In this document: positions 3,101 through 9,100 of the stretch, in pieces
Layout of the letters: every line of letters begins with the position of its first letter
How positions within the stretch are numbered: the stretch's first letter is position 1
Assembly: GCA_964036665.1 (NCBI GenBank)
Contig: OZ038527.1
Location: 6,076,001-6,140,000, forward strand
Source of the DNA: Gordius sp. MW1
Taxonomy: Eukaryota; Nematomorpha; Gordioida; Gordea; Gordiidae
Length of the DNA stretch: 64,000 nucleotides
Direction: 5' to 3'
Position numbers and translations under genes: made by a program
Notes under the pieces: model-generated
The model's database searches: none
What the model saw: the letters and a program-made list of their open reading frames with translations, nothing else
Told to the model about the DNA's origin: nothing

Positions 3101-6100
3101 TTAGCCTTAAATCGTTTTATGTTTTTGTTTTCCGATGGGAGATTAGTAAGGCATAGCCGGGGGAAACCCCTTTTTTATATATGATTTAATATTTGTTAAA
3201 GGTGTAAAGTGATAGAGGACATTGTGATTTATCAATATTTTACGCCAAACTGGGTTACTATAAATTTAGGTCAACAAATGTTTTGCTTATATTAAATCTA
3301 AACCCGATCTGCTGACCTCCTTCACCCCTTTCAAAATAAGTTCTATATATGTGTTGTCACAGAATGATAAAATTATAGTCCGGGTTAATAACTAAATTTA
3401 TCCAAGGACTAACATACATTTAGTCATGCTTTGGCAGGTTATTTTTGTTTTATTTTGCTCATTTTTATTTCAACGGAAATCTTTAATAAGTGCTACCAAT
3501 CGTTATACCACTACAAATTTTAATTGACTCCATCACTCATCATCGCACACGCTTTGCTGCTATTAATGTATAGCGTAAAAAGGAGATAATAATTGTTAGG
3601 TCGACCTTTAGTTAACTAAGGCTAATGGTTGGTTCTGGCCTGTTTTTCAAATATCGATAGCCTACAGGTCGCCTAAAAACAGACCAAAAAACCTTTGATC
3701 TGTTTATGTATCAGAAACCAGATTTGCCCGGCCCGGTCCGCTGCCCAAACCTGCCCGCCCGGCCCACGGGTCGGGCCCGGCAATTGTCGTAAGTTTTAAC
3801 TTTCGGGCGGGCACCATAACAAGATTCGGGCTCAATTTTGTTTTTAAAATAATGTATTATATTGTTTTTGTCTATATTTTGCCCCTTTTTTTAACTGATT
3901 TCATAATGTTTGTTAATCCTGGTTCTCATTTAAAAAAATCAAAATGAAGTTAAATTTTTTTTAAAATATAACGATGTTAGTGCTAAAAATTTTAAAACAC
4001 ACCATTTCGGGCCGGGCAGTTCGGGCAGCTGGGATAATTCGGGCATTTCCGGGCGGACACATAGAAGGGTTCGGGCGGGCAGATTAATTATAAGATCGGG
4101 CCGGGTTCGGGCAGTAAATTCTAACAAATCTGACCTCTGTAGTGGACTAAAACCGATGGTTCCATAAATATTCTAACTAAATAATACGTTTGTACGGATT
4201 ATGGCGCAGGCTAAGCAAGAAAATTGCACCTTATTCATTGGTATTTATATATATTTTATGTTATAGCTAGTGGTGGGAAAAACCTTAGGTGGTAAGGCTA
4301 GGTTATGAGTTAAGGTTTTTTATTAGAAAATATTATTCAGATGGCGTTAATCTTAACATAACATTTGCATTTATAATAATGATAAAAGAGAGTTTTGATT
4401 TGAAATAAAACTTTTTATATATTGATTCTAAAATACTATAATTTTTTTTATTTATTTTCGTATTTATACAAATGATAATTAATAATCTAATAAAATAAAT
4501 GCTTAACGACCGTACTTTTGACCCAATATATTGATATTAAAAAAGTATACCATATGTTTGCAAACCCCAAGGTGACCGACCCAACCTTAAGGATGGGGTT
4601 TGGGATTCCTTCCAATCTAAGATTTCGGCTAGAGCTAAAATATATCCCAAAATTTTAGATTGGGATTTCTGGAAAACCCTTAGATGGATGCAAGACTCAG
4701 GCTAAACCTAAAAGGTTTTAGGTTAGGGTATTAACTCTAAACCTTAAATGTATGAAACCCCCGGTTTCCCACCACTAGTTATAGCTCTTTTTGCCCGTCA
4801 CTTTTAATATCATTCAAACTTAAAAAATGTGATTAAGTAATGAAACCCCAAGCCATAAATGTGTGTTTTTTATATCTCCTCACTTATGCGTAGAATTTTG
4901 CAAGAGAAATTAGATCAACCAGTGAGTGAGCCTCCCTCCCCCCAGCCCCCCTCCCAGAACAACGAAAACGCGCGTTCGGAAGCGGCTATTCTGTCCCGTC
5001 ACGTCCAACAGTTGAAAACCGAAGTGGCTCGACTTAAAAGACAATTGACCGTAGCTCGGACCAACCGTATTATATTTTTATTTTAGAAAATTAATTATTT
5101 TCAACTTCGTATTATTGTTTTTTTAATCTGCGTTAAATTTTGTAGTTAAATTTAGGCTTTTTTTGTATAAAGGTCGATTGGTTACTTTCGCCTTTTTAAA
5201 TCAAGTTTTCACTTTGAAATTTTTCAAAATCCATAAATTACATAATGTGAAATTTTGTAAAAAGTGATTTATTTAATCGTTGTTTGTAAGGAAAAAAATC
5301 AAGATCATGAGCCTAACTTCAAAGCGATCTAACAAGCATTTGCAATCAAGTTTGATTGATTAATCCAATTATCATTTTTTGAAATTGATCATATTTTTAT
5401 TACCTTGTTATTTAAAAATAATAAGAATATTTTAAACTTCACTTACTCACGATCGTATATTTTTAGTTTTTAATGACAAATACTGAAAACTATGTCAATT
5501 TTTGACATATTGGTTTACATAAGGGCTCACTTAAAATTTTAATTAATTCTCACAATCAAGGGTCTGTAGGCTTTTTTTTAATTTATAAAACAATTATTAG
5601 GCGATTTAATTTTTTTTTACTTATTCACAGGTTTTTCTTCGTATATATTCGTTTTTATCTTTGCATTTGTTTCCTCTCTTTGCTAGATTACGAAAAGATG
5701 GAACAGTACAATAGGGAAGAGATAAATTTGCGGCACGAGAGTCAGAGTATCAAGAAAAAGTATATGGAGGACGTGGCCCTCACTCGAACTCTGTCCGAAA
5801 GCGAATCCAGCGTAGACATGGAAGACGACAAGTTTACCATTTACACATTATAAAAACTCGGGCCTTCGGCCCTCGTGGGAAGGGGGAGAAGGGAAGGGAA
5901 GAGGGGAAGGGAAGAGGGGAAGGGAAGGGGGGACGACTCATCTGTACTTCGTATAAATGTATCATATTTGCTATGCAATTTATGGGCGAGAAAGGTGGGA
6001 AGGGGCGAGAATGCCTATAGGGGGGTATTAAATGCCTAATGATTAATTAATTATTTATACAAATTTTCCATTATTAGGCAAAATGTAATAACGGCAAAAT

Positions 6101-9100
6101 GTAATATAGGCAAGGGTTAGATTTAGTGTTTGCATCTAGTTGCGTATTACATTAGTTTTTATGGCCTTTAGTGATTATGGGTCTAACAAACATTATATTA
6201 TAAAACAACACAATGTTAAGAATTTGCAGAATTGTTGGGAGAAATTTTTTGTTGAATTTGAACAATTTTTAATTAAAAAAATCAAAAATTTGGCCAATGG
6301 TCACTTTTTCTCTATTGGTCAGTACCCACAGATACTCTATAAGTCAATGATAGCCAAAAAAACGGAAAAAAAATTTTGATGCTCACTTCGGCCAATGGTC
6401 ATTTTTTTCCATTGGTCAGCAGCCAGCACACGGTAAAAGTGGATATAAATTCATAAGAGTAAAAAAAACGAAAAAAAAAATTTCGAATCACATTTTGGCC
6501 AATGGTCATTTTTTTCCATTGGTTAGCAGCCAGACGGTAAAAGCGGATATAAATTCATAATAGTCAAAAAAAAAAGGGAAAAAAAGTTTTCGAATCACAT
6601 TTTGACCAATGGTCATTTTATTCCATTGGTCAGCAGCCAGCGGACGGCCAAAAAGTCATAATAGCAATGGTAGGAACAGGAACAATCATAATAGTAAAAA
6701 AAACGAAAAAAATAATTTCGATTCACATTTTGGCCAATGGTCATTTTTTCCATCGGTCAGGAGCCAGCGGACGGCCAGAAAATCATAATAGCAATGGTAG
6801 TAACAGGAACAATCATAATAGTAAAAAAAAACGAAAAAATAAACTCGGATTCACATTTTGGCCAATGGTCATTTTTTTCATTGGTCAGCAGCCAACGGAC
6901 GGCCAAAAAGTCTTATTATCAATGATAGTAACAAGAACAATCATAAGAGTCAAAAAAACTCCGGGATTCTAACCCAAAAACTAGTTAAATTGCATAGCAA
7001 TTAGAAGTAAACATCTTTTATTTATGTTTATTATATAACATTGGTCAGCAGCCAGCGGACGGCCAAAAAGTCATAATAGCAATGGTAGAAACAGGAACAA
7101 TCATAATAGTCAAAAAAAACGAAAAAAATAATTTCGATTCACATTTTGGCCAATGGTCATTTTTTTCATTGGTCAGCAGCCAGCGGACGGCCAAAAATTC
7201 TTATTATCAATGATAGTAACAAGAACAATCATAAGAGTCAAAAAAAAACTCCGGGATTCTAACCCCAAAACTAGTTAAATTGCATAGCAATTAAAAAGTA
7301 AACAACTTTTATTTATGTTTTTTATATAACTAGTTAAATTGCATAGCATTAAAAGTAAACAACTTTTATCTATGTTTATTATATAACAAAAACTAGTTAA
7401 ATTGCATAGCAATTAAAAGTAAACAACTTTTATTTATGCTTATTATATAACTAGTTAAATTGCATAGCAATTAAAAGTAAACAACTTTTATTTATGTTTA
7501 TATAATAGATAATTTAACAAATCTTATATATAACACAGCGAGGGAGATAGAGATGAGGGGTGGGGCACCTCTTATGCATAGCAATTAAAAATAACACAGC
7601 GAGGGAGATAGAGATGAGGGGTGGGGCACCTCTTTCTCATGCATAGCAAGTAAAAATCGATAACCTAATATACCCAATGCAAATAGATAGGGTAACGGAC
7701 AGACAACGGACAACGGACAGACAACGGACAACGGACAACCAAAAACGAGCCCATAAATTGCATAGCAATTAATTACATCTCATATGTCTTTCGCTTGGCT
7801 AGTCTTTTTGAAAAGGAATTTAATTTTAATTGAAGTTATGAGCATTAGAAAAACAAATATATAAAATTTATTATGCCTTATGGTTTGTTTAGTGTCAACA
7901 ATGTTGAAAATATGAGTTAGTGACTGTTATAATTAACATTTTATCAAAAATGAAGCGGCAATATACGTTTAAATAACATTATGCTTGCAATGTTGTAAAT
8001 TTAGTCTTCTCTAAAATTACCAACTTTCCTATCGGAGGCACTTTATAAAATCTGACTAATGGCATCTTGAACACTGATCGGTATCTTGTTAACTAAGACA
8101 ACGAATTGCGGCAATATAGATGAGATCGAGATAAGTTTAACAATTCGAAGTTCATTTGCTTTAATTCCGGTCAGGGAAATGCATTGTTGGTTTGATAACA
8201 AAATTGGATAAGTACTCTGAGTAGTGTTGAAATGCCTAAACTCGATTTCAAAAAACTATAGTCCTTAATTTGCATTCAGAAATTTGGTCGCGTATGACGC
8301 TAGAAACTTGTTAGTACCCCTATATAACCCTTAATGCGGTAAAATGAATTTAGATCTTTTTAAAATATAGGTAGAGTCAATTTTTAATGTTGAAATATTA
8401 ATATTTTGGGCGAATCTTCATACGATTTCTATTTTTGCGTGCTTTCCCGCGATCATTAAACTCTAAACCCGTTTTTTTCTTGCATTAATCGTTGCCCCTT
8501 AGGAGCATGGATCAATCGCCACACGCGCTTTCGGCTAATCCAACTTACCCTTCCACACCTCGAGCCACTCGTAATGCCCCGAGCCCATCCATCCTGGCCA
8601 ACAGATCGGTGTCCCCTAGTATGACATTTCACATTTGATGAAATGCACGCAGGCAGGCGCACCCAGCATTTTTGCACGGCTTTGTTAGTTTGTAGTTGAG
8701 GCATTTGACGGGATTAGTGCTCCTTTTGCCTAGCATTATAGTGGATTTTTGTGGGAATTATGGTTATTTTAGGAGTAATTAATGGTTGTGTCTAGTTTAG
8801 AATGATAGTGGTTTTTTTAATTAGCGTTCATTTGTTCGACGTTATAGTAACGACTAGTGTTGTAAAAACGGCCTTTGGTTTAACTAAGACTAACGGCGAC
8901 CGTGGTTTGTTTTTCAAATTTCGACTAAGCCTACAGGTCGACTAAACATAAACAGACCAAAAAATCTTTGGGTTGTTTATGTTGGGTCAACCAAATACAA
9001 CCCAACCATTTTACCACACTAGTTACCACAATAGGAGCTACCATTTAAGTAACAATACATTGAGGTTTTTTGTCAAAAGTTTTAAATTATCCTTTTTTCG

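What the first reader, a model, noticed from the sequence alone, without database searches (positions are those of the whole stretch)
5854..7772. A large composite 'E' element with hairpin minisatellites, present three times and without a recognisable protein
E1 (5854-7772), E2 (41720-44086) and E3 (44087-45752) share one block order: GGGCC-TTC-GGCCC terminal hairpin, GA tract, unique part, array of CCAATGG/CCATTGG hairpin units, array of AATTGCATAGCAATT units, GAGGGAGATAGAGATGAGGG pair, ACGGACAACGGAC array, and a terminal AATTGCATAGCAATT box. None of the common element classes explains it. Short terminal motifs, a terminal hairpin and internal tandem arrays recall Helitron-related HINE/Helentron derivatives, but that is only inference. 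A short open frame (ATG at 6161) is kept in E1 and E2, but is low in complexity.
Basis: partly seen in the sequence, partly recalled or inferred. Interest (0 to 1): 0.8.

Follow-up and report, generated by a model that had tools for sequence, protein, structure and literature searches.

The report
Helentron-type (HINE) rolling-circle element, three copies
The repeated block is most likely a protein-less 'hitch-hiker' transposon of the known Helentron/DINE-1 type, found here three times in what looks like an animal genome, unusual mainly because it carries several extra copies of its own starting sequence inside itself.

Summary
The three copies are real and their ends are sharp. Read in the right orientation (E1 minus, E2 and E3 plus strand), the element has the layout described for HINE/DINE-1 elements, the non-autonomous Helentrons: a palindromic subterminal repeat at the 5' end with a GTCY-type microsatellite just inside it, central tandem repeats, an exact inverted copy of the 5' repeat 102-114 nt before the 3' end, a GC hairpin right before the end, and T-rich 3' junctions. 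No protein was recognised in the frames scanned, and no target-site duplication was seen at both borders. A structural scan finds this layout only in E1-E3, and in 1 of 40 simulated windows. Two solo 5' ends in the window begin at the same point. Helicase relics nearby look like a canonical Helitron and lack E-type ends. The partner Helentron and empty sites could not be tested, because no genome is held. The odd features are 7, 7 and at least 1 internal same-direction copies of the 5' palindrome, mostly after T-runs, and a head-to-tail E2-E3 pair of non-identical copies. I read these as tandem, 3'-truncated copies absorbed into one mobile unit. A new family of a known kind, of modest interest.

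The parts
5854..7772 (-). E1, complete HINE-like element (5' end at 7772, 3' end at about 5854)
   Evidence: Blast boundaries and alignment with E2/E3
41718..44084 (+). E2, complete element carrying a 0.47-kb insertion
44085..45751 (+). E3, complete element joined head-to-tail to E2; palindrome array mostly replaced by an unrelated block at 44289-44557
7749..7768 (-). E1 5' subTIR (palindromic TTGC-TAT-GCAA core, 20 bp)
   Evidence: single-strand fold of the E2 copy
5968..5987 (+). E1 3' subTIR, exact inverted copy of the 5' subTIR
5860..5872 (-). E1 3'-terminal hairpin GGGCC-GAA-GGCCC, followed by GAG and 5 Ts
7694..7739 (-). E1 GTCY-type microsatellite just inside the 5' subTIR; densest GTCY cluster found in the window (7 in 60 nt)
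7530..7657 (-). E1 pair of 61-bp modules, each opening with TTGCTATGCAT
6979..7501 (-). E1 58-bp palindrome units (five copies of the 5'-terminal motif in direct orientation), one of them set within the hairpin array
6290..7190 (-). E1 107-128-bp hairpin (CCAATGG/CCATTGG) repeat array
   Evidence: fold of two E2 units
41722..41741 (+). E2 5' subTIR
43962..43981 (-). E2 3' subTIR (inverted)
44064..44076 (+). E2 3' hairpin, followed by GAG and 7 Ts, the last two counted here as the start of E3
44089..44108 (+). E3 5' subTIR
45630..45649 (-). E3 3' subTIR (inverted)
45732..45744 (+). E3 3' hairpin, followed by GAG and 4 Ts
33304..33340 (+). Solo 5' end (37 bp identical to E1), then other sequence
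2474..2497 (+). Solo 5' end (23 of 24 bp) inside a probable short intron of a CCDC6-like gene

Best explanation
E is a family of non-autonomous Helentrons (HINE/DINE-1 type). A Rep-helicase-endonuclease made by a Helentron elsewhere in the genome would nick at the 5' end (TTAATTGCTATGCAATTTATGGGC) and peel off one strand. It would stop after the 3' palindrome and GC hairpin (GGGCCGAAGGCCCGAG plus Ts), and the single strand or circle would insert within T-rich or TT sites without duplicating the target. The anatomy is shown here; the enzyme and the steps are inferred from Helentron and Helitron literature. The internal arrays are DINE-type central repeats. Those built on the 5'-terminal palindrome most likely began as tandem, 3'-truncated copies laid down next to each other at T-runs, as E2-E3 still shows for whole copies, and then grew by slippage or unequal exchange; this last part is inference.
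For: Five places share the 5' start, to within the 1-2 nt that chance matches blur, and the six flanks compared are unrelated. Three of three full copies share the 3' hairpin with a T tail. An exact 20-bp inverted subTIR pair occurs in 3 of 3 copies: 5' copy from nt 5, 3' copy 102-114 nt from the end. As single strands the 5' subTIR of E2 folds as a 6-bp hairpin (4 of 200 shuffles as good) and the terminal hairpin of E3 as a 5-bp stem (8 of 200). A structural detector finds the layout only in E1-E3 and in 1 of 40 simulated windows. The GTCY cluster of E1 lies just inside the 5' subTIR, as in DINE-1 (PMC2374699, passages). Literature layout from PMC4067079 (Results parts 1-2 of 3): palindromic 12-15 bp subTIRs 2-4 nt from the 5' end, 3' stem-loop, T-rich or TT target, variable terminal Ts, tandem repeats, no coding capacity. 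Internal 5'-type motif copies, 7 (E1), 7 (E2) and 1 (E3), are in direct orientation; the one inverted copy per element is the 3' subTIR. [quoted passage not shown] A 3' hairpin acts as terminator in Helraiser (PMC4778049, passages).
Against: The distance from 3' subTIR to end (102-114 nt) exceeds the 38-60 nt given for mite HINEs. E2 and E3 keep only 2 GTCY sites each in their first 110 nt, against 7 in E1. The whole 126-nt 3' end of E3 folds only slightly better than shuffles (z -1.69, 14 of 200). No partner Helentron was found in this window; the helicase relics lack any matched endonuclease or Rep domain in the frames scanned and lack E-type ends. No empty site was seen, so T-T insertion without duplication is inferred. 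Ends of the internal modules do not fold convincingly: of 5 folded from E2, 2 have no structure and 3 have z -0.9 to -1.6, so they do not look like complete mini-elements. Both solo ends are of the terminal, not the internal, type.
Confidence: 0.88

Rival explanations
1. A non-autonomous canonical Helitron mobilised by the Helitron whose helicase relics lie at 11.6-16.5 kb in the same window.
For: PIF1-type helicase relics are present (PF05970 E 1.4e-11 and 1e-8, PF21530 E 5.6e-9; a second relic E 2.2e-4, below the curated cut-off). A GC hairpin loosely like E's (2 mismatches) lies at 11328-11340 beside the relic. Canonical Helitrons also have a 3' hairpin.
Against: E has neither a 5' TC nor a 3' CTRR end (end rules: TC/CTAG seen in PMC4778049 passages; CTRR recalled); it starts TTAATTGC, ends GAG plus Ts, and has inverted subTIRs. 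No 5' terminus or subTIR of E type was found near the relics at 4-7 mismatches.
Confidence: 0.05
2. A cut-and-paste (MITE or foldback) transposon.
For: Inverted 20-bp repeats and internal hairpin arrays (two units folded, z -2.4 and -2.5).
Against: The inverted repeats are not terminal at the 3' side: 102-114 nt with a hairpin lie beyond. No duplication at both borders: the longest shared words of the flanks are 5 nt and lie 3-7 nt inside the 3' flank (two insertions examined, E1 and the E2-E3 pair as one).
Confidence: 0.04
3. A local segmental or satellite duplication, not a mobile element.
For: All three full copies are within 40 kb; E2 and E3 abut; no genome could be searched.
Against: Six 500-bp flanks have no mutual similarity at E<=0.01. 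E1 is in the opposite orientation, and solo 5' ends start at the same point at two more places.
Confidence: 0.02
4. For the internal arrays only: plain replication slippage of a palindromic unit, with no role for tandem or 3'-truncated insertion.
For: The 58-bp units are near-identical neighbours (89% matches); slippage alone would keep direction and the preceding TTTT. Module ends carry no convincing hairpin.
Against: The same motif also opens a different 61-bp module and, inverted, the 3' end, which slippage of one unit does not explain.
Confidence: 0.4

Closest known systems
HINE (Helentron-associated interspersed elements) of Metaseiulus and Culex, PMC4067079
   Same: Palindromic subTIRs, 5' copy 2-4 nt from the end, 3' stem-loop, T-rich junctions with a variable number of Ts, tandem repeats, no protein
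   Different: 3' subTIR lies farther from the end (102-114 against 38-60 nt); the 5'-terminal palindrome is multiplied inside the element
DINE-1 of Drosophila, PMC2374699 (passages)
   Same: subTIRs, GTCY-type microsatellite near the 5' end, central repeat array with about 50-500 bp units, 3' stem-loop, TT preference
   Different: subTIR sequence unlike those in the part of Table 1 that I saw, and itself palindromic; the conserved DINE-1 core was not looked for
Cg_HINE of Crassostrea gigas, PMC7492417 (passages and one section)
   Same: HINE ends enclosing one or two satellite-like arrays; GTCY-type microsatellites in several
   Different: There, subTIRs of 11-12 bp are paired with a separate IR; here the subTIR is self-complementary and at least three repeat classes occur in one element (different arrays within one Helitron/Helentron are also reported, PMC12628747, passage)

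Membership tests
Helentron/HINE | Inverted subterminal repeats of at least 11 bp, the 5' copy 2-4 nt from the end | tested here: met
   20 bp exact in 3 of 3 copies; starts at nt 5, its palindrome at nt 3
Helentron/HINE | Stem-loop near the 3' terminus, after the 3' subTIR | tested here: met
   GGGCC-GAA-GGCCC in 3 of 3 copies, 6-8 nt from the end as I set it within the T-run
Helentron/HINE | 3' subTIR about 38-60 bp from the 3' end (mite families) | tested here: not met
   102-114 nt. Given as an approximate distance for one species and not part of that paper's family rule (at least 11 bp identical subTIRs), so I treat it as descriptive, not defining
Helentron/HINE | T-rich/TT insertion without target-site duplication | tested here: inconclusive
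   3' ends run into 5 (E1), 7 (E2, two of them E3's) and 4 (E3) Ts and the 5' side begins TT; no duplication at both borders; no empty site available
Helentron/HINE | Autonomous partner with the same ends encoding Rep-helicase-endonuclease | not testable with these tools
   No whole genome held; none in the window with E ends
HINE (non-autonomous) | No coding capacity | tested here: met
   All 7 open frames of 90 aa or more that overlap E1-E3, and the ATG frame of E1: no Pfam family above cut-off
DINE-1-like HINE | GTCY-type microsatellite just inside the 5' subTIR and central tandem repeats | tested here: met
   E1 has 7 GTCY in 60 nt, the densest found in the window; E2 and E3 have only 2 each; arrays
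Canonical Helitron | 5' TC and 3' CTRR ends | tested here: not met
   Ends TTAATTGC ... GAG plus Ts
TIR DNA transposon/MITE | Inverted repeats at both extreme ends plus target-site duplication | tested here: not met
   Inverted repeat is internal at the 3' side; no duplication at both borders

The most novel reading that the evidence does not exclude
The internal direct copies of the 5'-terminal palindrome work like iterons of rolling-circle replicons: several docking or start sites for one Rep protein. They make the element an unusually good substrate and let it build itself up by absorbing 3'-truncated tandem copies of its own front end.
Probability: 0.15. Interest if true: 0.5.

Novelty: new member of a known kind. 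Interest (0 to 1): 0.27.

Why it matters
It turns an unclassified composite repeat into a recognisable rolling-circle element. It also gives a clear example in which the terminal signal itself, not only unrelated satellite units, is multiplied inside a HINE. That bears on how Helentrons seed satellite DNA. Otherwise it is an ordinary new family.

Tried and rejected
Genome-wide search for E1: no genome is held for the window. The 20-bp subTIR in viral contigs gave 0 matches. In prokaryote genome contigs it gave 2 matches, both in one Saprospiraceae MAG. Both lie in the same bacterial protein-coding gene, with 21 bp exactly shared (one comparison extends to 33 bp at 88%) and no further similarity to E, so I take them for chance. 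tRNA and Rfam scans of the window found nothing. Frames inside E: no Pfam family above cut-off. The helicase relics as autonomous partner were rejected because E-type ends are absent and no endonuclease matched; only some of the frames downstream of the relics were scanned, no Rep domain matched either, and calling them a canonical Helitron rests on the PIF1 matches plus recalled features. The idea that each internal module ends in its own terminator hairpin was tested and not supported. My first structural detector missed E itself because of a coding error and gave 1 hit in 20 simulated windows; the corrected one is. The simulations keep neighbour frequencies only, not repeats. The solo 5' ends as evidence for use of internal start sites were rejected: 2 of 2 carry the terminal type (TTTATGGG). 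A literature search for the motif letters found 12 papers (9 listed), none about such an element by title (listing only). Searches with Helentron, HINE, subTIR, tandem or head-to-tail terms were. In what I read (PMC4067079: outline, Results parts 1-2 of 3, passages; PMC7492417: one section and passages; PMC2374699, PMC4778049 and PMC12628747: passages) I did not see subTIR palindromes multiplied inside a HINE; Repbase, supplements and subscription papers were not searched.
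Full report
What is there. The window has 33.8% GC and looks like animal DNA (inference): an exon that matches Pfam PF09755 'H4' (E 3.4e-7; the name CCDC6 is recalled) lies directly beside E1. E1, E2 and E3 are three copies of one element. In the element's own orientation, E1 is on the minus strand and E2 and E3 are on the plus strand. E2 ends in its hairpin, GAG and a T-run, and E3 begins at once. 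Pairwise identities over gap-free columns are E1/E2 98.2% (1842/1875), E1/E3 95.7% (1325/1384) and E2/E3 95.1% (1307/1375); the last two leave out the E3 block at 44289-44557. E2 is thus closer to E1 than to its neighbour E3, so the tandem pair was not made by one recent copying event.

Ends. The 27-bp sequence TTAATTGCTATGCAATTTATGGGCTCG is exact at the start of E1, E2 and E3 and at a solo end at 33305. A diverged copy (3 mismatches) starts at the same point at 2474. Local matches run 1-2 nt further out by chance in some pairs. Six 500-bp flanks (both sides of E1 and of the E2-E3 pair, and the upstream sides of the two solo ends) show no similarity to one another at E<=0.01. The 3' ends share CGAGGGCCGAAGGCCCGAG followed by 5, 7 and 4 Ts.

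Architecture against the published layout. The 20 bp from nt 5 (TTGCTATGCAATTTATGGGC) return exactly inverted 102-114 nt before the 3' end in 3 of 3 copies. The 5' repeat is itself a hairpin (AATTGC-TAT-GCAATT): 4 of 200 shuffles fold as well. The terminal GC hairpin had 8 of 200 (E3) and, on the other strand in E1, 5 of 200; the full 126-nt 3' end of E3 had 14 of 200. It is a GTCY-type microsatellite directly inside the 5' repeat: 7 units in E1, the densest found in the window, but only 2 each in E2 and E3. PMC4067079 (outline, Results parts 1 and 2 of 3, passages) describes HINEs with palindromic subTIRs 2-4 nt from the 5' end, a 3' stem-loop, T-rich or TT targets, variable Ts, tandem repeats and no coding capacity. 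PMC2374699 (passages) adds the GTCY microsatellite and central repeats of about 50-500 bp units. The numerical departure is the 3' subTIR distance (38-60 nt in mites); here a C-rich tract lies in between.

Coding. All 7 open frames of 90 aa or more overlapping E1-E3 and the 72-codon ATG frame of E1 have no Pfam family above cut-off.

Control. A scan for the combination (palindromic 5' repeat, 15-bp inverted copy 200-4000 bp on, GC hairpin within 150 bp, TTT after it) found 15 site combinations. All were in E1-E3; they are more than three because internal palindromes also qualify and two elements lie in tandem. It found none after E was cut out, and 1 hit in 40 simulated windows that keep only neighbour frequencies. 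An earlier, faulty version found none in the window and 1 hit in 20 simulations.

The odd part. TTGCTATGCA occurs 20 times on the two strands of the window, against 0.2 expected (20 simulations). Two sites are the solo ends and 18 are in E. Internal copies of the 5' motif number 7 in E1, 7 in E2 and 1 well-kept in E3 (a 14-bp partial one lies at 44369). They are in the direction of the 5' end (both directions searched); 13 of 15 follow TTTT and 2 follow TTCT. They open two different modules (61 bp and 58 bp). I infer that these modules descend from front ends of tandem copies lost at their 3' sides, then multiplied. [quoted passage not shown] Against it, the module ends carry no convincing terminator hairpin (5 folded), and simple slippage could explain much of the array. 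Both solo ends carry the terminal type of flank, so there is no sign that internal copies are used as starts.

Not the partner. The helicase relics at 11.6-13.6 kb (minus) match PIF1 models (E 1.4e-11, 1e-8, 5.6e-9); those at about 15.4-16.5 kb (plus) match weakly (E 2.2e-4, below cut-off). In the frames scanned there is no endonuclease or Rep match (not every short frame was scanned). No E-type 5' end or subTIR lies near them; a loosely similar hairpin (2 mismatches) is at 11328-11340. I take them for a canonical Helitron, partly from recalled features.

Verdict. E is, as far as I could see, a new HINE family by sequence, but a known kind by design. Membership rests on anatomy; the partner enzyme and the empty sites remain untested.

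Noticed in passing
window 2455-2558: Probable 104-bp intron with GC-AG ends in a CCDC6-like gene contains a 23-of-24-bp copy of the E 5' end; the exons on both sides read as ...DLEQ and [11 protein letters not shown]....
   Followed up: partly
window 5686-5853: E1's T-tail abuts an in-frame TAA of the CCDC6-like exon, about 20 bp after a possible splice donor (GTTTAC at 5832); E1 lies either in an intron or at the start of the 3' UTR.
   Followed up: partly
window about 41936-42410, with a relative at 38707-38988 and a weak partial one near 33459-33512: Insertion in E2 with inverted ends (AGACTAATAGACTGCTCATC) and a TA-rich duplication of up to 7 bp (TTATATA, read by eye): a MITE-like insert younger than E2.
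   Followed up: partly
window 11586-13609 (-) and 15434-16483 (+): Broken PIF1-type helicase relics, probably of a canonical Helitron, in opposite orientations and separated by about 1.5 kb without recognised domains.
   Followed up: partly
window 61944-63916 (+): Non-LTR retrotransposon frames: endonuclease (PF03372, E 1.1e-6) and reverse transcriptase (PF00078, E 3.9e-16).
   Followed up: no
window 44289-44557: Block unique to E3 with two GGTTCGA motifs resembling a tRNA B box (recalled); ARAGORN and Rfam find nothing.
   Followed up: partly
window about 17890, 20449, 27771, 35251, 37126: Another repeat family with GGGCGTAGCC or the like near its start and, in four of these places, a GGGGCGGCTGCCC hairpin.
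   Followed up: no
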